From: Pyropia yezoensis
Taxonomy: Eukaryota > Rhodophyta > Bangiophyceae > Bangiales > Bangiaceae
Length of the DNA: 64,000 nucleotides
NCBI GenBank assembly: GCA_009829735.1
Contig: CM020619.1
Coordinates: 28,174,063 to 28,238,062 of the forward strand
Direction of reading: 5' to 3'
In this document: piece by piece, positions 21,810 through 57,348 of the stretch
How positions within the stretch are numbered: position 1 is the first letter of the stretch
Layout of the letters: each line of letters starts with the position of its first letter
Program-made: the position numbers and the translations under genes
The notes under the pieces: model-generated
What the model saw: the letters and a program-made list of their open reading frames with translations, nothing else
The model's database searches: none
Told to the model about the DNA's origin: nothing

Positions 21810-24257
21810 TCAGTGGGTAGACCCACTGCCCGAGGGAGGCCACTCACGCGTAAGCGCGTAGACCTCCGTGCTCCACCGGTCGGCAACGTCACGACGGTCG
21901 ACCACCCGAGTTACCTCGGTGCATAGCTGGACGAGGGTGCTGCGGCCAGCCTCCACGTCCTCCAGAGCTTTCTGGAGGCGGTCCAGCACGCCACCGAAGC
22001 AACGCGCTGACCCAACCAGCGCAGCACCCGGGGGGATATCCCCCCAGCTAACAGAGAGACCCCCACGCATTGCGCGGGTAACAAGGGCGTCAACGCCCTC
22101 ATACCAGAGACGGGGACCCCCGTCATGTAGGACAGGGGCGGGAGGTGACACTGGCGCAGCCAGAGGGGCCACAGGAGCCGACACGGCTACCACCGGAGCC
22201 GGTGGCACCTGATACGAGGCCCGGTAGGACCCTACCGAAGGGGCTCCACCGTAACCACGGCGGTACTCCGCCCGACGACGGGACACCTCACGCTCCCCAC
22301 CCACAGAGCCCCACTCTCGGGGACGACGGCCAACCGCCGCCGGCATCGGGTTACCGAACCACGGAGCAAGGACCTGAAGAGGGTCATGGATAACCATGGG
22401 AATACCCAGGTCAGCAACAGCCTCGGTGGATGCCCACCCATGGCAACTGGGCTCACCCGGCTGAGTACGCCGGACACGCAACGAGTGACGAGGCAAGGGG
22501 GAAGCCCCAGCCTGCGGGTCCCGGTACGGGGGAAGGGCCAACACCCCAGCCCAGTTCACGGCATCGTGAACAGCCAGCAGGGCTTCGAACTCCCGGGCCA
22601 ACCCGGTCTTGGCGGCTATCAGATCCACGCCCAACTGCGCGATGTGCCGACGGACACCCGTCGGAAGATGAAACAGACGCCCCTGCCGGCGGACGGACAG
22701 CAAGAAGGATGAAGCCTGCCCGAGGGTAACCTCAAGGGTGAAGGTACCCTGCAACGGGTGGACCGGTCGCGAGGCCAACACACTCCCGAAGTATCGGAGA
22801 CAGGAGCCGGTGTCAAACCGGAAAGCAGGCGCGGGTTCCCACCCCTCCTGCCATAGCGGCGGGCGCACGGGAGTGTATACCGGAGCACGACCGTTGCCGG
22901 TCTGCAACGCACACGTTATATCCGTGCGGAACGCATCCGCCATGACACCATGGTTACGTCGCCAACTCGACGCCGACTTCAACCCCGCCATGGGCGGGTA
23001 GGGAGCCGTCAACGACAGATACGGGGGTACCGCCGGGTAGTAGTCAAAGTCGGGATACCGACCGGTACTGCTCACCGTCTCCCCAAACGCAACCGGCTCC
23101 GCCGCCGCCGCAATCCCCCGAGCACTAGCCGGGTAGTCAATCTCCCGCGGCAACGCGGGGGCAATCAGGTCGCAGACCCCGAAGTTGGGGTCGAGGTAGA
23201 CCTCACCCCGTCCCACCCGGGTGCGCCAGAGCTGCGCATGCCGGTCGTCCGGCTGACTCAGGATCCAATGGTGTTCCACCCGGACCGCGTTCGGCTGGTT
23301 GACCAGCCGCACCAACTCCCGCTCCCAGCTCGGGTCCACCTTGACGCGCCGGGAGGACTCTCCACGGGGATGCACCAGGTGGAAGTCCACCCGCATACGC
23401 CCATCGGACTCCATCGACTCTTGCACCGTGAGGTTTCTAACCCGAGCCACCAAGTCGGACACCGACATGGCGGGTTGACCCGCCGCCACGGCGACGCCGC
23501 CACCCAACGGGGCAACCCGGGCAGGACCAGGAAGAATCGGGGGCGCCGGGGGACGCACCACCGGCAGAGGGGCAGACGTCGGAGATGGACGAGGCCGAGG
23601 AGGAAGAAGAAGGGCGGGCGCCCGCCCGGAGTAACTCCCGGTGTCAACCGCCATGGGAGAAGGAGCGTCTTGACCGCTCGACACCCGCGGCACCGCAGGT
23701 ATGGTACCGGCGCCGGCACCACCCGTCGGCGTAGCCCCCGCCTCGGAAGAGGAAGGCACTTGGACAGCCTCCGGAGCCGGAGCCCCGGCCGTGCGGGCAC
23801 CCGCACCGTCTTGACCCGCCGCACCGGGTGTCGTACCGCCACCACCACCCGCGTCAACGTCGGGACCGCCTCGAGGAGTCACCGCCCGGACACCCGGACC
23901 ACCTTGACCAGCCGGAGTCGGCTGCGGGTCGCCACCTCCGCCGCAGGGCGGACCATCTTGAGGTAGCTGCGGTGAACCGGCACCGGCACCAGGCTCCATC
24001 CGGGCAGCCGGCAGAGAGGGGGTAGAAGCCGCCACGCGCGGTTGACCGCCGGGTTGACCTCCGGCCGACGGCACCGTCGTGCCGCTGCACACGGACGACA
24101 GTCCTCCGGCCGACAGACGGACGGACACCGCAGGCTCGTCGTCGTCAGACGAGCTCACCCCGTAACGCGCGGCGTCGGGACCGACAGGCGCGTCGTCCTC
24201 CATCTCCTCCCCGATCAGGAGGTCTTCCTCCTCTTCAAGCACCTGGGGATAGGACAT
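21810..24257 (-). CDS. antisense accessory gene of family A (copy A2)
   Basis: This is an 815-residue product from the ATG at 24257 (MSYPQVLEEEEDLLIGEE). That start is preferred because it is shared with copy A3; the frame is open to 24512. The N-terminal third is acidic, then Pro/Gly/Ala/Ser-rich and probably disordered. A conserved middle begins near SDLVARVRNLTVQ, includes RVKVDPSWERELVRLVNQP and EHHWILSQPDDRHAQLW, then YLSLTAPYPPMAGLKSASSW, and RYFGSVLASRPVHPLQGTF with RRQGRLFHLP. I recognise no known domain. The gene lies opposite to gag-pol between pol and the 3' LTR. Homologous genes are in all three LTR families here. Two stretches compared with copy A3 show mostly synonymous differences. 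Function is unknown; the conservation argues it is used by the element. Confidence 0.85.
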   Translation of the reverse strand: MSYPQVLEEEEDLLIGEEMEDDAPVGPDAARYGVSSSDDDEPAVSVRLSAGGLSSVCSGTTVPSAGGQPGGQPRVAASTPSLPAARMEPGAGAGSPQLPQDGPPCGGGGDPQPTPAGQGGPGVRAVTPRGGPDVDAGGGGGTTPGAAGQDGAGARTAGAPAPEAVQVPSSSEAGATPTGGAGAGTIPAVPRVSSGQDAPSPMAVDTGSYSGRAPALLLPPRPRPSPTSAPLPVVRPPAPPILPGPARVAPLGGGVAVAAGQPAMSVSDLVARVRNLTVQESMESDGRMRVDFHLVHPRGESSRRVKVDPSWERELVRLVNQPNAVRVEHHWILSQPDDRHAQLWRTRVGRGEVYLDPNFGVCDLIAPALPREIDYPASARGIAAAAEPVAFGETVSSTGRYPDFDYYPAVPPYLSLTAPYPPMAGLKSASSWRRNHGVMADAFRTDITCALQTGNGRAPVYTPVRPPLWQEGWEPAPAFRFDTGSCLRYFGSVLASRPVHPLQGTFTLEVTLGQASSFLLSVRRQGRLFHLPTGVRRHIAQLGVDLIAAKTGLAREFEALLAVHDAVNWAGVLALPPYRDPQAGASPLPRHSLRVRRTQPGEPSCHGWASTEAVADLGIPMVIHDPLQVLAPWFGNPMPAAVGRRPREWGSVGGEREVSRRRAEYRRGYGGAPSVGSYRASYQVPPAPVVAVSAPVAPLAAPVSPPAPVLHDGGPRLWYEGVDALVTRAMRGGLSVSWGDIPPGAALVGSARCFGGVLDRLQKALEDVEAGRSTLVQLCTEVTRVVDRRDVADRWSTEVYALTREWPPSGSGSTH

Positions 24258-24842
24258 GATAACGGGTGCGGAGTCCCCCGCGCCCACAAGCCGTCGACGG
24301 CTACGACCCGGTACGGTGGGATAACCGGGACGAGCCAGGGAAGCGCGGGCACCCGCGCTTATGACCACAAACGGCCACGAGAAGCGCCGCAGGCACGCGG
24401 GTCGACCCGCGCCCCACGGGGCTACGGCCGCGCTCCACCCAGGCACCTGGGCGGGACGGGGCCACCCCCACACCCGGGGTAAGCAAGAGGGGTCACCCCC
24501 AACCGACCCCACTCAACGCGGGCAGCCCCCGCCCCCCACTCAATCGTCCACACGAGAGGGGCCCCCCTACCACCAGGCACCTGGTGGCGGATCCGCTTGC
24601 ACCACCCCTCAGAGGGGGGTCGTGAACAGCAACCCGCATCGGGAATTTAACGGTCCGGAAAACGAATCGTGTGTGTGTACCACACAAAGGGGGGCACCCC
24701 CCTCGGACAACCTCGAAAAGGGGTGTCTGTCGCGACGGGGCGCAAAGCCCCACCCGACTGGTAAACGGTCACGCGACCCACTTACATTCGGTAACCCGAA
24801 TGCAACTCGACCCGAGGACGGGCCGAATCTAAGGGGGGGATA
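24258..24842. promoter_or_regulatory. upstream region of antisense gene, with polypurine tract
   Basis: No gene is seen. The roughly 330 bp nearest the LTR (GGGAATTTAACGG..., ACACAAAGGGGGGCACCCCCCT..., GTTACCGAATG-type text) recur almost unchanged at 46150-46476 and 51740-52050. They should contain the antisense gene's leader or promoter, and they end in the plus-strand primer tract 24831-24840. No promoter motif can be pinned down. Confidence 0.45.
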
Positions 24843-25204
24843 TGTAGCAATATGGTTGTCCGTATTGTGACCCTAATATTAGGGGGGCTACTTCTAATCC
24901 TTAACTTCAATTTGAGAGTCCGAGCTGGTCACGGTATCTATAAGTTACGTATGACCAGAGGGACTTGCATCTTGGGGTGGAGGGTAGTTAGTAGTGTCTC
25001 CGAGGGTTTATAACGAGGGGGCCGGTGGCGAATCCACCGCCGGCCAAGGTAGAACAACAAACCCCTCCCATTTGGGCTCCCATCTTGGTCCCGTGGCCTG
25101 CGCTCCAAGGACAGCAACCTTGGCCTCCCGGTGACGTTGGTGCCGATCCCCCTTGGTGAGTGTTCCCTGAGAGTGGACGTGCGACGGATTCCTATTGTGC
25201 TACA
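24843..25204 (+). repeat. family-A 3' LTR (copy A2)
   Basis: A 362-bp LTR, TGTAGCAATATGG...ATTGTGCTACA, with 7-bp inverted ends TGTAGCA/TGCTACA. It contains GGGTTTATAAC, a TATA-like element. In its diagnostic variants (CCGAGCTGG, GCGACGGATTC) it matches the LTR at 46477 rather than those at 31073 and 52051. Confidence 0.95.
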
Positions 25205-31072: not shown

Positions 31073-31436
31073 TGTAGCAATATGGTTGGCCGTATTGTGA
31101 CCCTAATATTAGGGGGGCTACTTCTAACCCTTAACTTTCAAGTTGAGAGTCCGTACTGGTCACGGTATCTACAAGTTACGTATGACCAGAGGGACTTGCA
31201 TCTTGGGGTGGAGGGTAGTTAGTAGTGTCTCCGAGGGTTTATAACGTGGGGGCCGGCGACGAATCCACCGCCGGCCAAGGCAGAACAACAAACCCCTCCC
31301 ATTTGGGCTCCCATCTTGGTCCCGTGGCTTGCGCTCCAAGGACAGCAACCTTGGCCTCCCGGTGACGTTGGTGTCGATCCCCCTTGGCGAGTGTTCCCTG
31401 AGAGTGGACGTGCAGCGGATACCCTATTGTGCTACA
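31073..31436 (+). repeat. family-A 5' LTR
   Basis: 364 bp, TGTAGCAATATGGTTGG...GTGCTACA. It shares CCGTACTGG, GTGTCGATC and GCAGCGGATACC with the LTR at 52051, which identifies these two as the pair of one insertion. Confidence 0.95.
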
Positions 31437-31437
31437 T

Positions 31438-31454
31438 TGGTGGAGCTGCAGGGG
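31438..31454 (+). other. primer-binding site, family A
   Basis: TGGTGGAGCTGCAGGGG, one base after the LTR. It differs by one base from the family B and C site (GCTGC for GCAGC). Confidence 0.8.
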
Positions 31455-31661
31455 ACGGGTTTCCGTCACCCTTGTGGTGACGCCGTCTTCGGCCCTAGCA
31501 CACGGATAGGGATCCGGTCCTTTTCTTGTACTCGTGGTGTTGCGACCTGATCGATTGTGTTGAGTTTTTACCTTTGACTGTGATCTACTGTTACTCTCCC
31601 CAATCTACCCCCTCGCTCTCTAATTCGTGGTGATTCTTACGTCGGTTGACTGATTGTGACT

Positions 31662-33734
31662 ATGTCTACCCAAGAGACGGGGAACGTTCATGATGACGGA
31701 TCGGCGTCGACGCCGACTCCGGAGGTGACTACGGGAACCGGGATCGGGAACCCGATCGACAACATTGAGACGCCAATGCTTTCCGGTGCCGGATCGACGT
31801 TTGGCACGGCTCGGACGGCAGGAGGCGGGGGCCCGCCTCAACTGTCATCGACCGACCTCGCTCCGCCGCCTCCTTCACCAGGGGATTCCCTGATGGCATC
31901 ATTGGCCCGCATCGAGGCCCTGTTTTCCGGACTCGACGCTCGTCAAGAGCGCACGGAGGACGCAATGGCAGTGTTGATGTCAACACGCCACACGACGGGA
32001 CCCCGTCGTGTTCCTCCCACACCGGTACGGTTTGAACCGGCCGGACTACTTTCGGAGTCCACCGGGGTCGACCCCGGCGCAGCACCTCCCGGACAGCTTC
32101 CGGACACAATGGGGTATGCATCCGACTCTTCGGCAGAGTTGGAACGGGGTCACACGGAGCGATACGCTCGGAGCACCCGAAGCGGACTCCGCGGACACGA
32201 CCCGGCGGATACTTACGCCGGTGGACAGTCGGTTATTGGGGGAGGGGGTACCCCCTTACAGTATCCCCACGACGAAGGAAGCCAAGCAACTCGGGTTCCC
32301 GAGGTGCCGACGCCTGAAGTACCATCTTCAGTGATGGAAGCTATGACCGCGCAGGTAACTGCGAGCCTACTGAGGCGGATGGAGTCCGATGAGTTTGCTC
32401 ATCAACTGGCTAAGCGACTGGATATCCAGGACACTGACATGGAGATCGTCAACGAGGTCTTCTGGTCGGTCCTTACTCCGGAACGTTATCGTTTGGAGGA
32501 CCGCTCTACCACCGTATCGGAATCGATGCGTAATACGTCGCATCGGGCGATCCGCTCTATGCAGACCCTTATGAAGGGAGTCCCTATGTTCGGGGGGCCG
32601 AACGGACGCCCGTTGGCAGTCATCGGCTTCTTTACTAGCTTTAAGGCAGCCGCAGACAAGGCACTCGTCAACGAGGGACTGGCCCTGGAGATCCTCCCGT
32701 TCTTTGTTGATGAACGGGTGCGAGGCATCCTTCGCCAGGCATCCCCGATGCCGGGAATGAGGGTCGCGGCCACCCCCATGGATGACCGTGGGATTCTCAA
32801 GGAGCTGCTGAGCAGCTACCTCAGTGAGGACAAGTGCGAGGACCACTACCGGGCCCTGCGCACTGCCACCGCCCAGAGCTGGGAGGATGAGGAGATGTTC
32901 AGACGACGGATTCAAGAGCTCGACTACGAGCTGGGGAAGCTCCTCGGAGAAGGGGAGCTACGGGCCATCCTGTTCGCAGGAGTACCCAACTACGTGCGGA
33001 TATCCGCACGGGGCGCCAACACGGCACGGACGAACTTCAGTCGACTGATGCATATGTGCAAGTCCCTGGGGGACGCCTACCGGGTGCTTCACCCGGAGTG
33101 TGCTCTTGCCTCAAAGCCCAAGGATGAGGGGAGCAAGCTCAATCTTACCCCGGTACCGAGGCAAGACAAGATTGAACGGAAGGCCGCACCGGTACTGTCG
33201 GCTACCGATTACGCTCCCACGGGCGAGGAGGAACCACTGGTTGACCAGCAGGGCCACCTGCTGTTACCGGCTACGCCGGTGATCGATGAGCAAGGTACGG
33301 TAGCGTACATCGCTTCGGCGGGGACCCAGTTCCAGGTCAGCGAGGGCACGGGACGTCGCTTCCCGTACGTACGGACTACGGGGTACTCCCCGGTCACGGG
33401 TAACCCTCACCAACCCTTGCCAACATGGGCGGTGCGCACGGAGGAACCTCCGCAGATTGCGGGCCGACCCAACCGGTTGGGGGAGTCCATGTTCCGGTTG
33501 ACCCAAGGACCCAAGGCCTACCAGGGAGCAGGCACTCGGGCGCCCGAGGGAGGCAACCGCCGCTACGGGGCTACCCCGATGCGAACTCAAGGGGGGACCG
33601 GCTCGTCCGGATGTATGTTGTGTGGGGATCCCCAGCACTGGGTGTCTTCCTGCCCACTCATCCCCGAGGAGTCTCGGCGGGCAGCGGCGCAACGCAAGGC
33701 ATCCACCGGGGGGTATCCCGCCAGAGCACCCTGA
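31662..33734 (+). CDS. gag: family-A Gag
   Basis: A 690-residue product from the first ATG at 31662 (MSTQETGNVHDD). The N-terminal 240 residues are Thr/Ser/Pro/Gly-rich and low in structure. A helical capsid-like core follows (MTAQVTASLLRRMESDEF onward; SHRAIRSMQTLMKG; LSSYLSEDKCEDHYRALR). The nucleocapsid zinc knuckle is CMLCGDPQHWVSSC near residue 655 (C-x2-C-x4-H-x4-C). Gag assembles the particle and packages RNA. The TGA stop at 33732-33734 is followed by pol in another frame. Pol's frame has a TAG at 33746-33748, so a simple frameshift fusion is not available; reinitiation is more likely, or this copy is damaged there. The leader 31455-31661 holds no gene. Confidence 0.88.
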   Translation: MSTQETGNVHDDGSASTPTPEVTTGTGIGNPIDNIETPMLSGAGSTFGTARTAGGGGPPQLSSTDLAPPPPSPGDSLMASLARIEALFSGLDARQERTEDAMAVLMSTRHTTGPRRVPPTPVRFEPAGLLSESTGVDPGAAPPGQLPDTMGYASDSSAELERGHTERYARSTRSGLRGHDPADTYAGGQSVIGGGGTPLQYPHDEGSQATRVPEVPTPEVPSSVMEAMTAQVTASLLRRMESDEFAHQLAKRLDIQDTDMEIVNEVFWSVLTPERYRLEDRSTTVSESMRNTSHRAIRSMQTLMKGVPMFGGPNGRPLAVIGFFTSFKAAADKALVNEGLALEILPFFVDERVRGILRQASPMPGMRVAATPMDDRGILKELLSSYLSEDKCEDHYRALRTATAQSWEDEEMFRRRIQELDYELGKLLGEGELRAILFAGVPNYVRISARGANTARTNFSRLMHMCKSLGDAYRVLHPECALASKPKDEGSKLNLTPVPRQDKIERKAAPVLSATDYAPTGEEEPLVDQQGHLLLPATPVIDEQGTVAYIASAGTQFQVSEGTGRRFPYVRTTGYSPVTGNPHQPLPTWAVRTEEPPQIAGRPNRLGESMFRLTQGPKAYQGAGTRAPEGGNRRYGATPMRTQGGTGSSGCMLCGDPQHWVSSCPLIPEESRRAAAQRKASTGGYPARAP

Positions 33735-33853
33735 CCCGCACCGGGTAGGCAGCCAGCTCCAGGTGGAGTACTGGCCGTCGAGGAGGCACCTCCTCAGCCG
33801 GAGGTCCCGGCGGACAGCACCCTACCAAGGGCGGGAAACGAGTAAGAGGAAGG

Positions 33854-38020: not shown

Positions 38021-38066
38021 CAACCCAACCGACACCGACTTCGGCTGTTGGGGGGTGAGGCTTCTA

Positions 38067-46839: not shown

Positions 46840-48474
46840 GCTGGGTCAACCCACCACCTCGGCGACGCGTTGTCTCGACTCGACACCCCGAGCGGGGATA
46901 CCCGCCCGGTGGACGAAGACATCTCGGTGGTACCGGTGTGCATGGTGGGTAATGCTACCCAGGGTATGGTTGACCATACCAGGGCACACCTTGCGTGCCC
47001 ATTGACCCTCGCGGACTTCCGCGAGGCACAGGCCAATGACGATGACTGTCAACGCCATCGCGCTAACCTCCTGGCCGGCACGGCCGGCATCTTCTCCGAG
47101 AACGAGGACGGACTCATATATCGACGGGCACCCGCCGATGGACGGCATGAGGTCGTGGTTCCCGTGTCCTTACGGCAGGCCGTCATAGAACTAGAACACG
47201 AGAACCCCACAGCCGGACACCCGGGGGGTTCGCGCATGTTCGCAGCAATGCGAAGGTTCTTCTACTGGCCAGCAATGGCCGTCGACGTAATCGACCACGT
47301 GCGGGGATGCCACCCGTGCGCACGGAATCGCATGAGTCTTCATAGGCGGGCATCCGCTATAAAACTGTTCCCCCCGGATGGACCCAACGAACAAGTCGCT
47401 ATCGACATACTCGGACCGCTTCCGGTAACGGAAGAAGGGAACAGGTACATCCTGGTCATGTCGAACCGCTTTATTAAGCTGTCACGGGCAGTAGTAATCC
47501 CGGACGATACGGCCTACACCATCATGAACGCAGTGGTTGACCACTGGATCAGTGCTTACGGAGTCATGAAGCATCTCCTCTCCGATAACGGAGCAAACCT
47601 TACGTCAGCATTCTGCACTAAGGTCCTGGGCATGTTCGGTATCGAACCCCGTCGCGCATCCGACTACCACCCGCAGTCCAACGGGCAAGTGGAGCGGTTC
47701 AACCGCACCATCGTCAAGATGCTCCAACGCTATGTGGCGGAACACACGAAGACGTGGAACAGGCATCTGTCCGTCTTGACCCTGGCATACAATGCCAGGC
47801 CCCACCGGAGTACCACCATTGCCCCCCTGGAATGGGTCATGCCGATGGGCGTCGGTAACCTGACGCTGCCACCGGGCAGATGCACTCGGTATGATACACC
47901 GAAGGGCCGACCCGCCGAACGGATCCACTTAGCTTGGTTGGCCAAGCTATCGTGGATGATTCCAAAGCTCAAGGGTGCCCTTGACCGTACACAACTTCGG
48001 TACAAGAAGAACTTTGACGCCCGGCTACGGGTACGCAACGCAACCCTTGTAACAGGTGACTGGGTCTATATCAGACACCAGACGTTCCGCGGGAACAAGC
48101 TCATGCAACCGGTCAAGGGACCGTACCAGATCTTACACAGTGATGACCACTCTGTTATCCTGCACTCCGATACGGAGATACAACGCATCAACCTCAACGA
48201 TGTGACACCTGCTCCGAAGCCGGAACAGCCTCAGCCGGTACTGGCTGGGTTGCTACATGAAGCTCTTACAACCCACCGGTCAGATGACCCGGTGGGACCG
48301 GATGGGATTCCATACCAAGTAGAGAGCGTGGTCGGACACACCGACCCGGACCTACCAGGACCCTGGTACGTCAAGGTTATGTGGGTCGGATACGACTCAC
48401 CCACCTGCGAACAGGCGGCGAATATACCCCGCCAACTCCTCATGCCTTACATGAGGCGACGACGCCTACTGTAA
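46840..48474 (+). pseudogene. pol: family-A pol, 3' part of host element A3
   Basis: Begins at GSTHHLGDALSRLD (the end of RNase H) and continues through the integrase zinc finger (HENPTAGH...CHPC), core (AIDILGPLP, LLSDNGANLTSAF, YHPQSNGQVERFNR) and chromodomain-like tail to the stop at 48474. The upstream RT part was lost when the inner A insertion recombined with its host. The reading frame of the rest is uninterrupted. It differs from the inner copy at many sites, so it is a distinct lineage of A. Confidence 0.88.
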
Positions 48475-48520
48475 CAACCCAACCGACACCGACTTCGGCT
48501 GTTGGGGGGTGAGGCTTCTA

Positions 48521-48641
48521 CCTACTAAGTAGGGTGTAACATGGTTATGGCAGACTTAGGCTTCTAAGTCAAATCAGACTTAGGTTTCTACGTCAAATCG
48601 GACTTGGGTTTCTAAGTCCAGCCAAGCTTAGGTAACTAAGC
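48521..48641. repeat. palindrome array, copy in A3
   Basis: CCTACTAAGTAGG, three GACTT(A/G)GG...CTA(A/C)GTC units and one AGCTTAGGTAACTAAGC unit. The unit composition differs from the other copies (3+1 instead of 2+2) while number and spacing are kept. Confidence 0.75.
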
Positions 48642-48653
48642 AAAACGCGAACC

Positions 48654-51464
48654 TTAATAAGTTAACTTAAAGGTAAACGCTAACTCCGATAATATCGAAG
48701 TAACGAGGGGGCTTACAAGGGAGGATGACCACCCCAAGCCAAGACACCAAGTGAGGGAGGATGACCTCCCCAAGCATGAACCAACCGGAAGAAGTTGGAC
48801 GGGAGGCAAGGCACCACTGAGCCAGGAGGGGTACTCCCCAGGGCAGCAAACAGAGGCAAGCAATGCCCCCAAAGGGGATGAGTTTATACTCACTAATACC
48901 CGGCCAGCATAAGGGTCACCGGGTCCCTCACTCTCACTCCCACAACCAGCAGCAGGGGGCCAGTCACGCGTCGCCGCGTACACTTCCGTACCCCAACGGT
49001 CGGCTATCTCACGCCGGTTGAGCGCCTGAGCTACCTCAGCGCTAAGATGCACCAGAGTGCTGTCACCAGCCTCCACAGCATCCAGAGCCATCTGTAGGCG
49101 GTTGAGCACCCAACCGAGGCAACGCGCGGTACCGACCAGCGCAGCAGCTGGGGAGATGTCCCCCCAGCTAACCGGAGGCGCCTCCGTCAACTCACGAGAG
49201 AGAAGGGCGTTAACGCCCTCATACCACAAGCGAGGACCCCCGTCGGGCATAACGGGAGCCGGCGATGCCACCGGAGGAACCGGAGCTACAGCCGGAGGAG
49301 TGGACACAGCCACCGCCGGAGGCGGCGGTAGCTGGTAAGGAGCACGGTACGACCGTGAAGGAGGACCAGACTCCTGGGCAGAACGCCAACCGGGAACCCG
49401 GTGGAACTCCCCACGACGACGATACGTCTCGCGGCCCCCACCAGTGGAGTCCCACTCACGGCGACGGCGACCCGTCCCCATAGGAGTCGGTTTACCGAAC
49501 CAGGGGGTTCCCACCTGGAGAGGGTCGGGCAGGACCACGGGAATACCCAGGCCGGGTACCGACTCGGTGGATGCCCACCCCTGGTATCCATCCTCACCCG
49601 AGGTATCTCGGCGGATACGTAGCGAGTGACGAGGCAACGGGATCGTTCCCGGTTGCGCGTCGCGGAACGGCGGCAAGGTCGCCACCGCCGACCAGTTCAC
49701 GGCATCGTGAACGGCCACGAGCGCAGTCAGCTCACGGGTTACCCCCGTCCCAGTAGCAATGGCGGTAACGCCTAGCTCCCCAAGGTGCCGTCGGACACCC
49801 GTCGGAAGATGGAAGAGCCGGCCCTGTCGGCGAGCCGACAACAGAAATGAAGAAACCTGCCCGCGGGTAACCTCGAGGGTGAAGACCCCCTGCAGCACAT
49901 GCGTGGGCCGAGCGGCCAGCACACTGCTGAAGTAGCGCAGGCAAGGACCTGTGTCAAACCGGAAAGCCGGGGCGGGCTCCCACCCCTCTTGCCACCCAGG
50001 CGGGCGCAACAGAGTGTATACGGGCGCACGACCGTTACCGGTCTGCAACGCGCACGTTACATCCGTTCGGAATGGGTCCGCCATGACACCATGGTTTCGA
50101 CGCCAGCTGGACGCCGACTTCAGGCCACCCATGGGCGGAAAGGGCGGCGTCAGCCACAGATACGGGGGATCCCCCGGGTAGTAATCCAAACCGGGATACC
50201 GGTTGGTACCAGGCACGAGCTGCCCGAAGGCCACAAGGGGCTGGGTAGCAGCCACCCCGCGGGCACCCGCAGGGTAATCCACCTCCCGCGGCAGCGCGGG
50301 GGCAACCAAGTCGCACACCACAAAGGCGGGGAGGAGGGCAGCCTCAGGCCGCCCGACCCGGGCGCGCCAGAGCTGAGCATTCCGGTCGTCCGGCTGGCTG
50401 AGTATCCAATGATGCTCGGCGCGAACCGCGTCAGGCTGGGCAACCAGCCGAGCCAACTCCCGCTCCCAACAGGGGTCCAACGGGACCGGACGGGAGGTAC
50501 CTCTGCGGCGACCCGACGGGTGGAAGTCCACCCGCATCCGACCGCCCGAATCCATGGGCTCTTGCACGGTCAAGCTGCGCACCCGGGCCACCAGCTCGGA
50601 GACCGACAACGGTGGATGTCCCACCGTAGAGGCGTCGCCGCCACTCGCGCAGGCGGTACCGCCAACCGCAGAGGCGACGCCGCCACCAACCAAGCCAACG
50701 CGGCCACCCAACGGGGCAACCCGGGCCGGCCCAGGAAGAAGCGCCGGCGCCGGCGGAAGCCCAACGGGTAGGTGCACCGGAGCCGGAACACGGGGACGAG
50801 GAGGAAGAAGTAGGGCGGGCACCCGCCCGGAGTAGCTCCCGGTGTCAACCGCCATGGGGGAAGGAGCGTCTTGACCGCTCGACGCCCGCGGCACTGCGGG
50901 TACGGTACCGGCACCGGCCCCACCCGTCGACGTCGCCCCCGCCTCGGAAGGGGGAGGCACTTGGACTGCCTCCGGAGCTTGAGCATTAGCCGTGCGGGCA
51001 CACGCACCGTCTTGACCGGCCACCCCGGGTGTCGCGCCACCACCACCACCCGGGTCAACGTCGGGATCGCGTTCAGGATGCACCGTCCGGACTCCCGGAG
51101 CACCTTGCCCAGCCGGAGTCGGCCGGGGATCGCCACTTCCGCCGTAGGGCAGGCCATCTTGGGGTAGCTGCGGCCAGCCGGCACCGGCACCAGGCTCCAT
51201 CCGGGCAGCCGGCAGAGAGGGGGTAGAAGCCGCCACGAGCGGTTGACCGCCGGGTTGACCCCCGACCGACGGCACCGTCGTGCCGCTGCACACGGACGAC
51301 AGTCCTCCGGCCGCCAGATGGACGAACACCGCAGGCTCGTCGTCTTCAGACGAGGTCGCCCCGTAACGCGCGGCGGCAGCGGCAGGACCGACAGGCGCGT
51401 CGTCCTCCATCTCCTCCCCAATCAGGAGGTCTTCCTCCTCCCCAAGCACCTGGGGATAGGACAT
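48654..51464 (-). CDS. antisense accessory gene of family A (copy A3)
   Basis: 936 residues from ATG 51464 (MSYPQVLGEEEDLLIGEE). Same plan as copy A2: acidic start, Pro/Gly/Ala-rich linker, then the conserved core (RSLTVQEPMDSGGRMRVDF, EHHWILSQPDDRNAQLW, GLKSASSWRRNHGVMAD, RYFSSVLAARPTHVLQGVF, RRQGRLFHLPTGVRRH). The normal stop near the end of TRDWPP is lost, adding about 60 residues that run through the spacer to 48654. In 57 codons compared with A2 (22773-22847 and 22932-23027) I count 17 codons with synonymous and 7 with replacement differences. The function is unknown. Confidence 0.85.
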   Translation of the reverse strand: MSYPQVLGEEEDLLIGEEMEDDAPVGPAAAAARYGATSSEDDEPAVFVHLAAGGLSSVCSGTTVPSVGGQPGGQPLVAASTPSLPAARMEPGAGAGWPQLPQDGLPYGGSGDPRPTPAGQGAPGVRTVHPERDPDVDPGGGGGATPGVAGQDGACARTANAQAPEAVQVPPPSEAGATSTGGAGAGTVPAVPRASSGQDAPSPMAVDTGSYSGRVPALLLPPRPRVPAPVHLPVGLPPAPALLPGPARVAPLGGRVGLVGGGVASAVGGTACASGGDASTVGHPPLSVSELVARVRSLTVQEPMDSGGRMRVDFHPSGRRRGTSRPVPLDPCWERELARLVAQPDAVRAEHHWILSQPDDRNAQLWRARVGRPEAALLPAFVVCDLVAPALPREVDYPAGARGVAATQPLVAFGQLVPGTNRYPGLDYYPGDPPYLWLTPPFPPMGGLKSASSWRRNHGVMADPFRTDVTCALQTGNGRAPVYTLLRPPGWQEGWEPAPAFRFDTGPCLRYFSSVLAARPTHVLQGVFTLEVTRGQVSSFLLSARRQGRLFHLPTGVRRHLGELGVTAIATGTGVTRELTALVAVHDAVNWSAVATLPPFRDAQPGTIPLPRHSLRIRRDTSGEDGYQGWASTESVPGLGIPVVLPDPLQVGTPWFGKPTPMGTGRRRREWDSTGGGRETYRRRGEFHRVPGWRSAQESGPPSRSYRAPYQLPPPPAVAVSTPPAVAPVPPVASPAPVMPDGGPRLWYEGVNALLSRELTEAPPVSWGDISPAAALVGTARCLGWVLNRLQMALDAVEAGDSTLVHLSAEVAQALNRREIADRWGTEVYAATRDWPPAAGCGSESEGPGDPYAGRVLVSINSSPLGALLASVCCPGEYPSWLSGALPPVQLLPVGSCLGRSSSLTWCLGLGWSSSLVSPLVTSILSELAFTFKLTY

Positions 51465-52050
51465 GATAACGGGTGGCAGAGTTACCCGCGCCCACAAGCC
51501 GTCGACGGCTACGACCCGGTACGGTGGGACAACCGGGACGAGCCAGGGAAGCGCGGGCACCCGCGCTTATGACCACAAACAGCCACGAGAAGCGCCGCAG
51601 GCACGCGGGTCGACCCGCGCCCCACAGGGCCACGAACGCGCTCCACCCAGGCACCTGGGCGGGACGGGGCCACACCCCCGTACGGGGCAACCAAGAGGGG
51701 TTCACCCCGAAACCGCCCCCGCGAAAAGCGGGAGCGGCCGCCCCCATTCACTCGGTAACACGAGAGGGGCTCCCCTACCACCAGACACCTGGTGGCGGAT
51801 CCGCTTGCACCACCCCTCGGAAAGGGGGGTCGTGAACAGGAACCCGCATCGGGAATTTAACGGTCCGGAAAACGGATCGTGTATGTACCACACAAAGGGG
51901 GGCACCCCCCTCAGGCAACCTCGAAAAGGGGTGTCTGTCGCGACAGGGCGCAAAGCCCCACCCGACTGGTGAACGGTCACGCGACCCACTTACATTCGGT
52001 AACCCGAATGCAACTCGACCCGAGGACGGGCCGAGTCTAAGGGGGGGATA
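51465..52050. promoter_or_regulatory. upstream region of antisense gene, with polypurine tract
   Basis: No gene. Shares most of its sequence with the corresponding regions of the other A copies and ends TCTAAGGGGGGGATA at the LTR. Confidence 0.45.
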
Positions 52051-52414
52051 TGTAGCAATATGGGTGGCCGTATTGTGACCCTAATATTAGGGGGGCTACT
52101 TCTAACCCTTAACTTTCAAGTTGAGAGTCCGTACTGGTCACGGTATCTACAAGTTACGTATGACCAGAGGGACTTGCATCTTGGGGTGGAGGGTAGTTAG
52201 TAGTGTCTCCGAGGGTTTATAACGTGGGGGCCGGCGACGAATCCACCGCCGGCCAAGGCAGAACAACAAACCCCTCCCATTTGGGCTCCCATCTTGGTCC
52301 CGTGGCTTGCGCTCCAAGGACAGCAACCTTGGCCTCCCGGTGACGTTGGTGTCGATCCCCCTTGGCGAGTGCTCCCTGAGAGTGGACGTGCAGCGGATAC
52401 CCTATTGTGCTACA
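52051..52414 (+). repeat. family-A 3' LTR of outer element
   Basis: 364 bp; differs from 31073-31436 at two sites seen (GGTTGG/GGGTGG and GTGTTCCC/GTGCTCCC). Followed by target copy CTGGT. Confidence 0.95.
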
Positions 52415-53592
52415 CTGGTCCTAGGACCCGTCTAGTGGAAGAGGAGCAAGTCCGATTAATGGACTCGCTCGGGGTCATAGAACCCTCCCACGGGGAATGG
52501 TCTAGCCCCGTGGTAATCGTGCCCAAGCCTGGGGGCGGCAAACGATTTTGCATCCACTACCGTCGCCTTAATGAGATGACGGTGAAGGATGCATATCCTA
52601 TCCCGCGTATGGACGAGTGCTTAGATTCACTCGGGAACGCCAACGTCTTTTCGACGTTGGATTGTAATGCTGGCTACTGGCAAATACCGGTAGCCAAAGA
52701 GGACCGGCCGTTAACGGCCTTTACGTGCCACTCTGGCACTTGGCAGTGCAAGCGCCTCCCTTTTGGGTTGTGCAATGCACCAGCCACCTTTCAGCGTGCC
52801 ATGGACATGATCCTGGCAGGCGTGAAGTGGCAGATATGCCTCGTCTACTTGGATGACGTTATTGTCTTTTCCAAGTCGGCGGAGGATCATTTAGAGCACT
52901 TTGAGACGGTGCTCTCGCTCCTCAAGGCCCATGGGGTTTCCCTCAAGGCCAATAAGTGCCACCTCTTTCAAGAGGAGGTCGACTACCTCGGCCATGTCAT
53001 AAGACCTGGTCGCGTTCTCGTTAACGAGAAAAATACGAGAGCGCTACGAGGGTTGCAATACCCTGGTACACAAACCCAGATGAAAAGTTTTCTGGGGATG
53101 TGTGGCGTCTATCGGCGCTTCGTACGGGACTTCGCCAAAGTAGCGAAGCCACTAACCGCGCTGACGAGTACCAAGCTTCCTACGAAGCTATCTCCCCCCC
53201 CAGAGGTGGAGAGGAGCGCTTTCGAGACGCTACGGGGGCTGCTTCTATCACCCCCCGTTTTAGCGATACCTCGGATGGGCGGCCACTATATAGTGGACGT
53301 GGACGCGAGCTATGAGCAGCTCGGCTGTTGTTTATTACAACAGCAGCCCGACGGGGAGTACCTCCCTGTAGGGTATTATTCCCGGCCGTTGAATCCGGCC
53401 GAGAGAAATTATCACGTCACCGAGATTGAAGCGCTCGGTGTCGTATGGGCCGTGACACACCTACGATCCTACCTTGAAGGGGAGGAATTTGGAATAAGGT
53501 GTGATCACCGTGCCCTTTTGTCGGTGCTGGCTACAAATAGCCCAAACATACGGATTAACCGTTGGCGGCTTCGGCTGTCTGAGTTTACCTAA
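52415..53592 (+). pseudogene. pol: family-C pol: RT and RNase H
   Basis: Continues the frame broken at 31067. RT motifs are FCIHYRRLNEM (His for the usual Asp), STLDCNAGYWQIPV, LPFGLCNAPATFQRAMD and YLDDVIVF. RNase H has YIVDVDASYEQLG, TEIEALGVVWA and CDHRALLSVL. An in-frame TAA at 53590-53592 stops it within the RNase H end; the same frame then continues (KLRNKPGADHN, VADALSRL). The text before 52415 in this frame is family-A LTR, not pol. Confidence 0.85.
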
Positions 53593-55361
53593 AAACTCCG
53601 GAATAAACCGGGGGCCGACCATAATGTGGCCGACGCTTTGTCACGCTTGCCCACGGACGAGCCTGATAAGGCTCCTATAGATGAGGACCTACCGGTCCTC
53701 GCCACGGTGACCAGGTCTGCTCAGGCTTTGGCCGGGCGGAGCGAGAAGCATCGCCCTTTGGGGCCTATTACGGTAGAGGAGCTTGTAAGAATTCAGGCTG
53801 AGGACACCTTCTGCCTGGAACGGCGGAAGGAATGGGAGTCGGTACCTCCCCCTGACCCAAAATGGGCCAGGAAGGCTTTCTTCTTTGAGAACGAAGAAGG
53901 AATACTATGCCGGAGGTCCATCTTCCTGGACACCACTCAGATGGTGATCCCCTCATCTCTGCGGGAGCGTCTTATGACGTACCACCATGAATTACCATTG
54001 GCGGCCCATCCTGGGGCTCGCCGGATGTACGCCACGCTGCGGCGTGGGGTCTACTGGCCCACCATGATTGTAGACGTGTACAAACACGTCTCCCAGTGCA
54101 CGGGGTGTGCTCGGAATAGGCTGGATGAGCGTAGGCATACGTCTACGCTCAAGCTATTTTCAGCCAACGGGCCCTTCGCCAGCCTGGCGATGGATATTCT
54201 CGGACCCTTACCCGCTTCTGGAAACGGTAACAGGTTTATACTTGTTATGGTGGACCGTTTTAGTAAGCTCACCCGGGCGGTCCCCATGAAGGAGATTACC
54301 GCGGTGGCAGTGGCTTCGGCCTTTATTGACGTCTGGGTAGCGTCTTATGGCATACCCGACTCAACGCTGACCGATAACGGTCCGCAGTTTGCTTCCTTTT
54401 TTTCCAGGGGGTCTTAGGACTCCTAGGGATTGAGGCGAAGTATACGACGCCTTACCACCCCCAAACAAATGGGCAGGTGGAGCCATGTAATCGCACTATT
54501 ATGAGGCAGCTCCGGGTTTATACCGCGGAGCACCCAAAGGAGTGGGACCGTTATGTCTCACTCCTCACAACGGCCTATAACACTCAAGTGCATTCTAGCA
54601 CTGGACAGGCCCCCCTCATGTTTGTGAGCCCAAGGTGGCTCCACACCATGGGGTTCGAGCGCCTCCCTAAGCTCCGTCCCCTTAAGGAGAAGGAGGACTT
54701 GGGGGAAGGCGAGGACGAGGACTCGCAGACCGCAGCCTTACGGTTTGTGGAAGACCTGAAGAGCATTATCCCCCAGGTGCGTAAGCACCTGGCCAAGGCG
54801 CAGGAGGCGTATAAGAAAACCTTTGACGCCACTGTCGCGGAGAAGAATAAGGACCTACGGGAGGGGGACTGGGTCTTCCTGGCCTCCCATACCCGTAAGC
54901 GGTCTAAGCTCGCTCATAAGAGCGTGGGCCCCTACATGGTCTTGAGGACCGATGGGCGACGTTTCACTGTGGAGACCCCTTCAGGGATCCGAACGGTTAC
55001 GAGTGACCATGCCACTCGTGCCCCGGCACCCCAAGCAGGCCATCCTGCCTGGGCACGTGCCGAGGCAACACGAGCCAACTTTAAAGTGGCTCAGCCCTCC
55101 CCGAGTACAGGGGATGGCAAAGCGTACGTGTTCGAGAATTTTGTGGACCACCGCTTTAATGCGGGGGGCGCGCTTGAATTGCGCATACGCTGGTTCGGCT
55201 ATGGCCCCCAGGATGATACCTGGCGGCTAGCAACGGGTTTGCCGGCTGAAGCCGTGCGAAAATATTGCAAAAGAAGAAAGCTTAAAATTCGGGTTACCCC
55301 GAGTGGCATCTTCTTTTATGCAACGGCACTAAAAAGTAAGGGGCAAAAGCTTTTACTCTGA
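53593..55361 (+). pseudogene. pol: family-C pol: integrase and chromodomain-like tail
   Basis: Integrase zinc finger HELPLAAHPG ... CTGCARN, core AMDILGPLP and TDNGPQFASF. The frame then breaks in a T-run near 54395-54402 (stop at 54415), and the rest (TPYHPQTNGQVEPCNRT) continues in the next frame to 55361, ending with a chromodomain-like segment (YVFENFVDHRF...LELRIRWFGYGPQDDTW). A one-base loss in the T-run explains the shift. Inactive in this copy. Confidence 0.85.
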
Positions 55362-55445
55362 TGGAAGCCGTCTTAATATGTCCTCACGCGGACCTACGCA
55401 AGCAATGCCCCTCGGGGTAAACTCCTATTGACAAGAAACAAAGCA

Positions 55446-55463
55446 CCCCGGCTCAAGCCGGGG
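55446..55463. terminator. hairpin between family-C pol and antisense gene
   Basis: CCCCGGCT-CA-AGCCGGGG, a perfect 8-bp stem with a 2-base loop, in the short spacer (55362-55473) between the two opposed stops. Its position mirrors the palindrome array of family A. A termination role is inference. Confidence 0.35.
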
Positions 55464-55473
55464 AGTACAACCC

Positions 55474-57348
55474 TCAATACCTCCGATAATGGGGGGATGA
55501 AGGGGGGTAGGTCCCATACCCGGGGGAACGGTATGGACCTGCCTGGGACTCCTCCCCACGGTCGGTACCCGAAGAGCGGCCCCCCGCTGAACCGGGGGCC
55601 CAACCATAAGCGGCTCCCGCGGCCTCTCCATAAGGAGTGGCCGGTGATGAAGCCCGACCCCGTAGTGCCTGGGTGTGGAGGGCTTGCATGTCCACCAGGG
55701 CCCGCGTCTCAGAAGTCGCGACCCCCGACTCACGACGCATACGCGTCGTGAGATTCTCCGCCGACAGGTCCGCTAAAGTGGCCTGACGTTGGGAAGGAGA
55801 GGCACCCGCCAACACGCCAGCCATGTCGTTGGCCAAGCCTGTATAGGCCCGGAATAACGCCATAGTCAATACTGACTGGGTGCCAAAGGTAACCTCGGCC
55901 GGGAGGTCCTCTCCAAAGGAGGCCCTCATCCCGAACAAAAGTTGGGGGGACATAGTGCCCCCCACCTCCAGACGAAGTTCGGGGTTCCACCGAAAGGGTG
56001 GGACCCTCGGGGGGGCAACCAGACGGTTACCCCCATAACCCCCATCAAGGCCAGCTCGGCCTCGACCGAAAGCTCCTCGGGAGGAAGCCCCACCCCGGCC
56101 TTTCCAGGCCGAGGTCGCCGCCGGTTGCCCGGTGGTGGCTCCCGCGCCAGCGCGAGGTGCTCCTGCTCCCGGCGGCCGGGCTGGGTCACAAGGGATCCGG
56201 TCGGACCCCCAGAGGGAGGAGCCCCCTCCCGTATGGGAGGGGCGCTCCCCGGGAGGGACGACCTCCCCCAACTCGGGGAAGAGCCTTGGGCCCTCCCGGC
56301 ACATCTGCACGTCGGGGTTGGGAACCCGAGTGGATGCAGTAATACCCTCACCGTAAGGGAGGGTCGGGATGTCAAGCCCCTCCATAAGGAGGAGCCGCTG
56401 ATCCCCGGGGGAAAGCTCCCGGGAGACCAAGACGAGTCCTCGGCGACCGCCTTGATCGCGGAGGCGCTCGTCAGGAACGAGCGACCTCACCCGCCGAAGG
56501 AGTGAAAGGGCCTCGTCAAAGAGACCCGCCTTGACAGAGTCCTCCTCTTTAAGGAGGAGGGAAGTGTCCAACGCAGAAAGAGCCTCAAGAAGGGGCTCGT
56601 TCAAGAGCCATAAATGGCCATGAAACGTGACGGCGGACAAAAAGATGTCCGCCACCTCCACCAGCCAGGAAGTGGAGGCCATGGCATTCTCCCGCCCCCC
56701 TAAAGGGGAGCGGACAAGAAGGCTTCCTCGCAGGAGGAAGAACGACGGAAGACGGCAAGCCATTCCCCGTGGGACCTCCAAGGAGGACCACCACGGGGGC
56801 ACAGCCGGGTAGAGCCCCCCCCTCATAGGGGTGGGGACGTGATGGTACTCCTTCTGCTCCCCATTATTGAGGAGTCCAGGAAATTCCCGTAGGCGCCACT
56901 CCGCCAGAGCGCCCCGAGTATAATACCCGGGGTCGTCCAAGCCGAAAGTGGGGATGGGCCCCGGGTAGTACTGGAGGTCAGTGCATGGTCCCTCCTCTGT
57001 AAAGGGGGGGCCCGCCAGTATCTCCTCGTCCCCCTTAAGGAGGTCTATGTCAAGGCGACCCCTGTAAAAGGGTAAGTCCGATGGCAGCACCTCCGACACG
57101 GTATAAACTGTGCCGTACTGCATGCGCAGGTTGCGCCAGATGTTAACCATCGGGAGTACACCTACGGCTTGATACCGTAGGTGTGAAATGCTACTTGACC
57201 GGGGACCCCTGGTTGAGTCGTACCGATCCTCATCGATAGCGATGAGGGGTACGCCCAGGTGAGTGTCAACATCATCAGGGGTTGACCCACGGTCACCCTC
57301 CGGTAGGTCATCCACCCCCATAGGGGGGTGGTCTCCCGGAGAGGACAT
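55474..57348 (-). CDS. antisense accessory gene of family C
   Basis: 624 residues from ATG 57348 (MSSPGDHPPMGVDDLPEGD); the frame is open upstream through a minisatellite to 57831, which I treat as non-coding. Core: YYPGPIPTFGLDDPGYY, YPAVPPWWSSLEVPRG, RGSLLVRSPLGG, TSWLVEVADIF, GHLWLLNEPLLEAL, then LVSRELSPGDQRLLLMEGL. These align in order with family B. The C-terminal third has Arg/Gly-rich patches (KGRGGASSRGAFGRGRAG) and a Tyr/Ser/Pro tail. There is no stop or frameshift, although gag and pol of the same element are broken several times. Unknown function. Confidence 0.82.
   Translation of the reverse strand: MSSPGDHPPMGVDDLPEGDRGSTPDDVDTHLGVPLIAIDEDRYDSTRGPRSSSISHLRYQAVGVLPMVNIWRNLRMQYGTVYTVSEVLPSDLPFYRGRLDIDLLKGDEEILAGPPFTEEGPCTDLQYYPGPIPTFGLDDPGYYTRGALAEWRLREFPGLLNNGEQKEYHHVPTPMRGGLYPAVPPWWSSLEVPRGMACRLPSFFLLRGSLLVRSPLGGRENAMASTSWLVEVADIFLSAVTFHGHLWLLNEPLLEALSALDTSLLLKEEDSVKAGLFDEALSLLRRVRSLVPDERLRDQGGRRGLVLVSRELSPGDQRLLLMEGLDIPTLPYGEGITASTRVPNPDVQMCREGPRLFPELGEVVPPGERPSHTGGGSSLWGSDRIPCDPARPPGAGAPRAGAGATTGQPAATSAWKGRGGASSRGAFGRGRAGLDGGYGGNRLVAPPRVPPFRWNPELRLEVGGTMSPQLLFGMRASFGEDLPAEVTFGTQSVLTMALFRAYTGLANDMAGVLAGASPSQRQATLADLSAENLTTRMRRESGVATSETRALVDMQALHTQALRGRASSPATPYGEAAGAAYGWAPGSAGGRSSGTDRGEESQAGPYRSPGYGTYPPSSPHYRRY

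What the first reader, a model, noticed from the sequence alone, without database searches (positions are those of the whole stretch)
21810..57348. A homologous gene on the strand opposite to gag-pol in three different Ty3/gypsy families
Seen: between pol and the 3' LTR, elements of families A (21810-24257, 48654-51464, and split 38499-39766/44785-45891), B (42032-43975) and C (55474-57348) each carry one long minus-strand gene. B and C align in order (P-x-WW-x3-EVP-x-G; GS; W-L-x-EV; LW-x-L; REL...EGL). A shares FGSV...LEV...R-x-G-x-LFHLP with B. Known: extra and antisense ORFs near the 3' LTR exist in some plant Ty3/gypsy elements, but I know of no family matching this core. Inference: it was acquired before the three families split and is kept because it helps the element.
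Basis: partly seen in the sequence, partly recalled or inferred. Interest (0 to 1): 0.92.

Follow-up and report, generated by a model that had tools for sequence, protein, structure and literature searches.

The report
Antisense gene of red-algal jumping genes
Three related families of retrotransposon, probably from a red seaweed, each carry an extra gene of unknown fold on the opposite strand; it is kept as a protein and its two halves have been swapped between copies, which suggests it is a real working part of the element and not leftover DNA.

Summary
Families A (three copies), B and C of a Ty3/gypsy group each carry one long minus-strand gene between pol and the 3' LTR. B-C and A-B homology is significant (BLASTP 5e-21 and 4e-8); A-C is not significant directly and rests on B. 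Coding is shown for A by dN/dS about 0.3 in that frame. Gag, pol and the antisense gene diverge in parallel, which fits one ancestral gain. No credible Pfam, NCBIfam, PHROG or PDB match; the three named homologues are from the red alga Pyropia vietnamensis. New here: the gene is a two-module mosaic. Among A copies whose pol ends, flanks and LTRs are mostly above 90% identical, the N-module (with upstream DNA) and the C-module were exchanged separately, meeting in one conserved motif. The layout is known from plant Grande, RIRE2 and Retand, but this protein is not TRP28. Best reading: a nuclear regulator of its own element, perhaps anti-silencing; unproven. Structure prediction and own-genome search never ran.

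The parts
21810..24257 (-). Antisense gene of element A1, 815 aa from ATG
   Evidence: dN/dS 0.30 against A3 in this frame
48654..51464 (-). Antisense gene of element A3, 936 aa from ATG
38499..39766 (-). C-terminal part of the antisense gene of element A2, cut off by the B insertion
   Evidence: mostly 95-100% of A1 at DNA level; in frame to 39764
44785..45891 (-). N-terminal part of the antisense gene of element A2, 369 aa, other side of the B insertion
42032..43975 (-). Antisense gene of element B, 647 aa from ATG
   Evidence: BLASTP to C 5e-21, to A3 4e-8; 97% identical protein P0008 from an unnamed source
55474..57348 (-). Antisense gene of element C, 624 aa from this ATG (ORF open to 57831)
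39766..44784 (+). Element B: LTRs (identical 469-bp match 39766-40234 and 44316-44784), target duplication CACCG, most of gag-pol missing, chromodomain-like pol end 40925-41920, antisense gene
31073..52414 (+). Outer A element: LTRs 31073-31436 and 52051-52414 (99.2% identical over a 369-bp match) with CTGGT on both sides, inserted in C; contains A2 and, inside A2, B
17833..25204 (+). Element A1, 3' part: pol (ORF from 17792 to 21331), antisense gene, 3' LTR about 24843-25204
52415..58979 (+). Element C, 3' part: pol to 55361, antisense gene, 3' LTR 58340-58979
23637..24500 (-). N-module of the A-family gene (codons 1 to about 207) with upstream DNA: A1 and A3 82-96% alike in 100-bp windows, A1 and A2 mostly 58-76%
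21800..23636 (-). C-module of the A-family gene (about codon 207 to the stop) with the core shared with B: A1 and A2 mostly 95-100% alike, A1 and A3 mostly 62-83%
23568..23657 (-). Conserved motif (codons 201-230, PMAVDxGSYSGRxxALLLPPRPR) in which both exchanges meet
   Evidence: found in 9 of 11 A-type rows; the other two start after it
24343..24368 (-). Promoter-like block 86-111 nt upstream of the A1 ATG; same block at 45984-46009 (A2) and 51551-51576 (A3)
   Evidence: pattern, taken from these three sites, has no other match in the window and none in 100 shuffles; best A1-A2 41-column window 95% against a mean of 68%
21408..21504 (.). 24-bp dyad repeats (CTTAGG-NNN-CTAAG type) between pol and the antisense gene of A1; also about 38097-38186 (A2) and 48551-48640 (A3)
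   Evidence: RNA fold z -5.0 on the plus strand of A1
21713..21726 (+). 14-mer GCAAGCAATGCCCC near the end of the antisense gene; also 38402 (A2), 48856 (A3, inside its longer ORF) and 55398 (C)
   Evidence: 4 matches with up to 1 mismatch in the window, all exact; 0.04 expected

Best explanation
An ancestral Ty3/gypsy element, probably of a red alga, gained a protein-coding gene on the strand opposite to gag-pol, between pol and the 3' LTR, and families A, B and C inherited it (homology shown; single ancient gain inferred). The gene runs towards pol, probably from its own promoter just upstream of its ATG (inferred from a conserved TATA-like block, seen in A only). It makes a 620-940 aa protein without a transmembrane-like segment: an acidic, low-complexity N-terminal region, a conserved core of about 185-240 aa, then proline-rich or basic stretches and a C-terminal region. 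I think it acts in the nucleus as a regulator of its own element, activating or de-silencing the LTR or tuning copy number, in the manner proposed for Grande gene23 and for the VANC anti-silencing proteins (inferred). Purifying selection keeps the protein (shown for A), while template switching between co-packaged RNAs reassorts diverged N- and C-modules among otherwise similar elements (mosaic shown; mechanism of exchange inferred).
For: Homology. Coding and purifying selection: A1/A3 dN/dS 0.30, substitutions by codon position 149, 116, 279; the real minus frame has 1 codon position with a stop, the other five frames 17-34. Parallel divergence: gag A-B 24%, A-C 24%, B-C 40%; RT-region pol A-B 54%, A-C 58%, B-C 69%; antisense A-B 23-24%, B-C 30%, A-C none at E 1e-3. 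Mosaic: A1/A3 dS 0.16 (0.09-0.23) in codons 1-200 against 0.90 (0.64-1.31) in codons 396-600, with 0.31, 0.36 and 0.17 in the three thirds of the compared pol; A1/A2 dS 0.87 (0.62-1.23) in codons 1-200 against 0.03-0.19 in the rest of the gene and 0.06-0.14 in pol. Breakpoints at about 21770-21800, 23607-23636 and 24470-24560. Trees conflict: N-module groups A1+A3 (97/96) and A2+P0002 (86/98); C-module groups A1+A2+P0002 (100/99) without A3. P0002, from another source, carries the A2 combination, so that one is not an artefact of this assembly. Promoter-like block. No transmembrane-like stretch (highest 19-residue Kyte-Doolittle mean 1.69) and acidic first 40 residues in A1, A2, A3, B and C (net -13, -12, -9, -6, -9).
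Against: No structure, localisation, binding or expression data: structure prediction was never accepted by the busy machine. Direct A-C homology is not significant. Nuclear and regulatory action is analogy only. The promoter block is not tested and was seen in A only. Two exchange events in three copies do not prove that the gene is a special target of exchange; A1 and A3 also differ in pol (92% identical, dS up to 0.36), so they are not near-identical elements. The A3 combination has no independent copy. In some segments with little divergence the dN/dS interval includes 1 (for example A1/A3 codons 1-200: 0.55, 0.29-1.08).
Confidence: 0.45

Rival explanations
1. The protein is a sequence-specific anti-silencing factor like VANC of VANDAL transposons: it binds repeated motifs in the element's own non-coding DNA, and its modules are swapped because specificity evolves in an arms race.
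For: Non-coding 24-bp dyad repeats lie beside the gene in 3 of 3 A copies. The N-module is exchanged together with the DNA upstream of its ATG. [quoted passage not shown]
Against: No sequence relation to a known protein was found. No such repeats are listed or seen by eye in B or C between pol and the antisense gene. The repeats could equally be RNA hairpins or terminators (z -5.0). VANDALs are DNA transposons (recalled).
Confidence: 0.2
2. Copy-number control: the protein, or the antisense RNA itself, restrains related elements, and diverged modules let an element escape control by its relatives.
For: Antisense transcription towards pol is expected from the convergent layout; antisense RNA control is discussed for LTR elements in PMC7264820. 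Diverged alleles in otherwise similar elements fit escape from self-recognition.
Against: An RNA-only function does not explain the codon-position pattern. No match at E 1e-3 between the antisense proteins and the window's gag or pol.
Confidence: 0.15
3. A structural or particle-associated protein (env-like or an accessory of the virus-like particle).
For: Position next to the 3' LTR, where env-like genes lie (PMC7264820); size of 620-940 aa.
Against: No transmembrane-like segment; opposite strand to gag-pol, unlike env; no match to the gag of the same elements.
Confidence: 0.1
4. Separate captures or swaps: the families exchanged the gene after they split, instead of inheriting it.
For: Exchange of parts of this gene among A copies is demonstrated.
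Against: The gene is at least as diverged between families as gag is (antisense B-C 30% against gag 40%; about 24% in both for A-B), so no recent exchange between families is visible.
Confidence: 0.15
5. No function: long spurious open frames of a GC-rich sequence.
For: GC of 61% makes long chance ORFs likely, and other long ORFs without a Pfam match are present.
Against: Frame-specific purifying selection and distant homology best in this frame; homologous proteins predicted in another named species.
Confidence: 0.03

Closest known systems
Antisense additional ORFs of plant Ty3/gypsy elements (Grande gene23, RIRE2, Retand with TRP28 / PF04195)
   Same: Antisense gene between pol and the 3' LTR, conserved across related families, often with tandem repeats in the same interval, and in Grande an own promoter and nuclear protein (passages of PMC11963269; parts 1 and 2 of PMC7264820).
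   Different: No TRP28 match in 12 of 12 members scanned at E up to 10. Retand is described as non-chromovirus and found in eudicots and Liliopsida only; B and C here have a weak chromodomain-like pol end and the host is probably a red alga. Module exchange was not mentioned in the passages that I read.
Boty of Botrytis cinerea
   Same: Antisense ORF between pol and 3' LTR outside plants, as cited in PMC7264820.
   Different: The protein was not compared; no sequence was at hand.
HBZ and the antisense proteins of HTLV-type retroviruses
   Same: Antisense accessory gene in a retroelement, with nuclear localisation (cited in PMC11963269).
   Different: No sequence comparison was made; the HTLV antisense promoter lies inside the 3' LTR, while the candidate here lies between LTR and gene. 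That HBZ has a bZIP is recalled; no bZIP match appeared in Pfam.
VANC anti-silencing proteins of VANDAL transposons
   Same: Element-coded protein with conserved and variable regions, acting on repeat motifs in the element's own non-coding DNA (passages of PMC5735166).
   Different: Another kind of element; VANC sequences were not compared; binding not tested here.

Membership tests
Ty3/gypsy LTR retrotransposon (the host elements) | gag with zinc knuckle, then protease-RT-RNase H-integrase in that order, between LTRs | tested here: met
   RVT_1, RT_RNaseH, Integrase_H2C2 and rve in A pol, with a gag-asp_proteas match below its cut-off; zf-CCHC in the gag of the minus-strand B relative; LTRs, primer site and purine tract seen. 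The A and C gag ORFs gave no Pfam match; C pol is in several ORFs.
Chromovirus | Chromodomain at the integrase C-terminus | tested here: inconclusive
   Chromo E 4.7e-5 (B) and 2e-4 (C), both below Pfam's own cut-off; none listed for A; no RT tree against named clades was made.
Antisense aORF of plant Ty3 elements (arrangement) | Antisense coding gene between pol and 3' LTR, shared by families | tested here: met
Retand-type TRP28 protein | PF04195 domain | tested here: not met
   No match in 12 of 12 members at E up to 10
Antisense aORF of plant Ty3 elements (arrangement) | Transcription from an own promoter, as in Grande | not testable with these tools
   Only a conserved promoter-like block was seen
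Env-like protein | Transmembrane segment, sense strand | tested here: not met
   Minus strand; highest 19-residue hydropathy mean 1.69
VANC anti-silencing factor | Binds motif arrays in its own element and causes loss of methylation | not testable with these tools
   Repeats present in A; binding unknown
HBZ-type antisense retroviral regulator | bZIP domain (recalled) and antisense promoter in the 3' LTR | tested here: inconclusive
   No bZIP match listed by Pfam; promoter position not measurable

The most novel reading that the evidence does not exclude
A previously undescribed antisense gene family of red-algal Ty3 elements encodes a two-module, self-specific regulator or anti-silencing factor. 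Its N-module travels with its own upstream control DNA and its C-module is swapped separately at a conserved junction, so that elements with similar engines wear different regulator alleles in a contest with host silencing or with sibling elements.
Probability: 0.22. Interest if true: 0.85.

Novelty: new variant of a known kind. Interest (0 to 1): 0.62.

Why it matters
Antisense genes before the 3' LTR are described in flowering-plant elements, in the fungal element Boty and in some retroviruses, and the function of the retrotransposon ones is stated to be unknown (PMC7264820, PMC11963269). A protein family without a TRP28 match in another, probably red-algal, lineage suggests that elements have gained such genes more than once, which argues for a general need. 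The module exchange gives a handle: different alleles in similar backgrounds let one test directly whether the gene sets self-specificity.

Tried and rejected
Spurious ORF: rejected for A by the frame-specific substitution pattern, and for B and C by distant homology in this frame.

Known domain: Pfam gave only DUF6214 at E 0.014-0.09, below its cut-off and in 3 of 12 members, taken as chance; NCBIfam and PHROGs gave none at E up to 0.1 for 4 of 4 proteins; the PDB gave one weak hit each for alignments A1 and A4 (E 0.77 and 0.96, taken as chance) and none for alignment A6.

The search with alignment A1 found 7 proteins, three named Pyropia vietnamensis and four unnamed; the B+C search found one, P0008. 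Only the 8000 candidates sharing most words were scored in each, so absence elsewhere is not shown. Scans of viral contigs with the A3 protein, alignment A1, A1 pol and B, and of prokaryote genome contigs with alignment A7, gave no confirmed relative. Rfam and tRNA scans of the window gave nothing.

Direct A-C homology: tried and not significant. RNA folding of the C interval between pol and the antisense gene was ordinary (z -0.9 and -0.2).

Dropped rows: the comparisons with the A2 C-terminal piece were out of frame and are not used; they were redone. In the trees, P0004 was left out of the N-module (too short there), and P0001, the A2 C-terminal piece and P0008 were left out of both; the C-module tree used at most 200 residues per row. 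P0003 has a long branch in both trees.

No title that I saw listed described antisense ORFs in red-algal elements; the library lacks most subscription papers, and supplements were not open. PMC7264820 was read as parts 1 and 2 of 3; PMC11963269, PMC3350952, PMC7423979, PMC12477816 and PMC5735166 only as found passages; the rest as search listings.

Not obtained: structure prediction (alignment A5 only) and own-genome search were answered busy every time, so no fold and no genome-wide copy count exist.
Full report
WHAT IS THERE. The window (64,000 bases, 61% GC, one gap of 500 N at 12176-12675) is a nest of Ty3/gypsy elements. Element C carries its 3' part at 52415-58979. Into C went an A-family element with LTRs at 31073-31436 and 52051-52414 (99.2% identical over a 369-bp match) and CTGGT on both sides. 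That element holds parts of two A copies: A3 (pol from 46840, antisense gene, 3' LTR) and A2 (pol, antisense gene, 3' LTR 46477-46839); A2 seems to lack a 5' LTR of its own, so recombination or an assembly join is possible. Element B (39766-44784, LTR match of 469 bp at 100%, CACCG on both sides) sits inside the antisense gene of A2. Element A1 (3' part 17833-25204) and a minus-strand B relative (pol and gag 11979-16893, LTR about 17367-17834) lie to the left. The RT, RNase H and integrase matches fit Ty3/gypsy. A2, B and C share nearly the same primer binding site.

THE ANTISENSE GENES. The five copies whose 3' part is in the window (A1, A2, A3, B, C; 5 of 5) have one long minus-strand ORF between pol and the 3' LTR, tail to tail with pol: 815 aa (A1), 936 aa (A3), 647 aa (B) and 624 aa (C) from the chosen ATG, and two pieces for A2. 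The intervals between the pol stop and the antisense stop are 478 (A1, A2), 179 (A3), 111 (B) and 112 bp (C).

ARE THEY HOMOLOGOUS? B-C: E 5e-21 over 237 aa. B-A3: 4e-8 over 230 aa. C-A1: 0.071. Profile comparisons give probability 90% (E 1.4e-6; B+C against A1) and 87% (E 3.8e-6; 3 rows against 8), over the same part of A1. Local shuffles: none of 300 reached A1-B, A3-B or B-C; 221 and 88 of 300 reached A1-C and A3-C. So A-B and B-C are homologous, and A-C follows through B, since the aligned parts of B overlap (B residues 95-319 and 145-377). An exact 14-mer, GCAAGCAATGCCCC, near the end of the gene occurs four times in the window, in A1, A2, A3 and C (0.04 expected with one mismatch allowed). 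It supports an A-C relation independently, although I noticed it by eye before testing, and the three A sites are not independent.

ARE THEY CODING? Between A1 and A3 (813 codons), changes by codon position are 149, 116, 279; dN 0.174, dS 0.573, ratio 0.30. In a nucleotide alignment the real minus frame has one codon position with a stop and the other five frames have 17-34; four of those five give ratios above 1, and the remaining plus frame, which also has most changes at its third positions, gives 0.47. By segment, the 8 diverged comparisons give ratios 0.19-0.39 with bootstrap upper bounds of at most 0.591 (100 resamples); segments with little divergence have wide intervals, some including 1. 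The same method gives 0.12 for pol, so the antisense protein is less constrained than pol. B and C could not be tested, because no second copy with DNA was at hand.

VERTICAL DESCENT. Identities fall in parallel: gag A-B 24%, A-C 24%, B-C 40%; pol RT region A-B 54%, A-C 58%, B-C 69%; antisense A-B 23-24%, B-C 30%, A-C none at E 1e-3 (B gag and RT are from the minus-strand B relative). This fits one ancestral gain. It does not prove it, since no wider set of elements was available.

A MOSAIC GENE. Sliding identity shows that the end of pol, the flanks and the LTRs are 87-100% alike per window among A1, A2 and A3, mostly above 90%, while the antisense gene is not. In the C-terminal part (about 21800-23636) A1 and A2 are mostly 95-100% alike, and A3 is mostly 62-83% from A1 (one window of 48% holds an indel). 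In the N-terminal part and upstream DNA (about 23637-24500) A1 and A3 are 82-96% alike and A2 mostly 58-76% from A1 (one window of 7% holds an indel). Synonymous divergence says the same: A1/A3 0.16 (0.09-0.23) in codons 1-200, 0.64 (0.51-0.88) in 201-395, 0.90 (0.64-1.31) in 396-600 and 0.84 (0.68-1.12) in 601-815, with 0.31, 0.36 and 0.17 in three thirds of the compared pol; A1/A2 0.87 (0.62-1.23) in codons 1-200 against 0.03-0.19 in the rest and 0.06-0.14 in pol. Synonymous sites differ about four- to five-fold between neighbouring segments, which relaxed constraint on the protein cannot explain; exchange with a diverged lineage can. At 30-column resolution both exchanges meet at about 23607-23636, inside a motif (codons 201-230) found in 9 of 11 A-type rows, Pyropia vietnamensis included, the other two starting after it; the outer edges are at the stop codon (about 21770-21800) and 210-300 bp upstream of the ATG. 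N- and C-module trees conflict with support. A protein from another source, P0002, has the A2 combination. This is a sample of three copies and two events, and A1 and A3 are themselves only 92% identical in the compared pol.

ARCHITECTURE. The first 40 residues are acidic (net -13 A1, -12 A2, -9 A3, -6 B, -9 C). The core follows, then proline-rich or basic stretches; B is strongly basic near its end (+10 and +6 per 40). No transmembrane-like segment. A 41-bp block about 70-110 nt upstream of the ATG is 95% identical between A1 and A2 where the region averages 68%; it holds a TATA-like ATAAG and a GC palindrome. I read it as a candidate core promoter. The interval between pol and the antisense gene of A holds 24-bp dyad repeats in all three copies that would fold as RNA (z -5.0 and -3.5 on the two strands in A1, -5.2 in A3), while the C interval does not stand out (z -0.9 and -0.2). 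They may be terminators or binding sites.

HOST. Of seven relatives found with alignment A1, three are named, all Pyropia vietnamensis, at 43-49% identity; four are unnamed. I infer a red alga, probably of the Bangiales; I found no gene in the window that names its host. One survey reports no retrotransposon chromodomains in the red algae it searched, including Porphyra yezoensis (passage of PMC3350952); B and C here have weak chromodomain-like pol ends. LTR elements are the predominant repeats in Pyropia yezoensis (passage of PMC7423979).

COMPARISON WITH THE KNOWN. Antisense genes between pol and the 3' LTR are described in Grande, RIRE2, Retand and PvRetro13 of plants and Boty of a fungus, and their function is said to be unknown; Grande's protein is nuclear with its own promoter; 97% of the clusters of recently active Retand elements encode TRP28. 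The layout here is the same. The protein is not TRP28 (12 of 12 members without a match) and matches nothing else tested. So it resembles that class in layout, but as far as tested it is a separate family.

MECHANISM. Shown: homology, coding and purifying selection in A, module exchange. Inferred: own promoter, nuclear location, regulation of the own element. Among regulators I cannot separate activation, anti-silencing and copy control; my split is in the rivals. The central gap is the lack of a structure and of a genome-wide count, both blocked by busy machines.

Noticed in passing
26311-27763 and 58340-59626: The C 3' LTR plus 647 bp of right flank (58340-59626) is repeated at 26311-27597 (99.4%); there it is followed by five TTAGGG units (27605-27634) and then by the last 126 bp of a C LTR and its primer site. 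It looks like a healed chromosome end fused again, or an assembly join of two haplotypes.
   Followed up: partly
26306-26310, 26951-26955, 58980-58984: GTAGC lies on both sides of a C LTR at 26311-26950 and after the C 3' LTR, as if a solo LTR and a full element shared one target site.
   Followed up: partly
58958-61075 (-): 705-aa ORF next to C with a weak DUF1280 match (E 0.002, below cut-off); by its look possibly a transposase (recalled impression, not tested).
   Followed up: no
11979-17834 (-): Minus-strand relative of element B with gag, protease region and RT-RNase H, running into a 500-base N gap; no second LTR or antisense gene of it was found in the window.
   Followed up: partly
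31425-31470, 40220-40262, 27750-27800: A2, B and C have nearly the same primer binding site, TTGGTGGAGC-GCAGGGGA, so all three families probably use the same tRNA primer.
   Followed up: partly
40925-41920 and 54477-55361 (+): Weak chromodomain-like ends of pol in B and C (E 4.7e-5 and 2e-4, below Pfam's cut-off).
   Followed up: partly
21514-21786 against 48654-48930: The A3 antisense ORF runs about 90 codons past the place of the A1 stop; DNA beyond the A1 stop translates to a stretch 91% alike to this A3 end (85% in A2) although it is outside the A1 and A2 ORFs; which state is ancestral is unknown.
   Followed up: no
5650-6873 (+): 407-aa ORF without a Pfam match, outside the elements described.
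   Followed up: no
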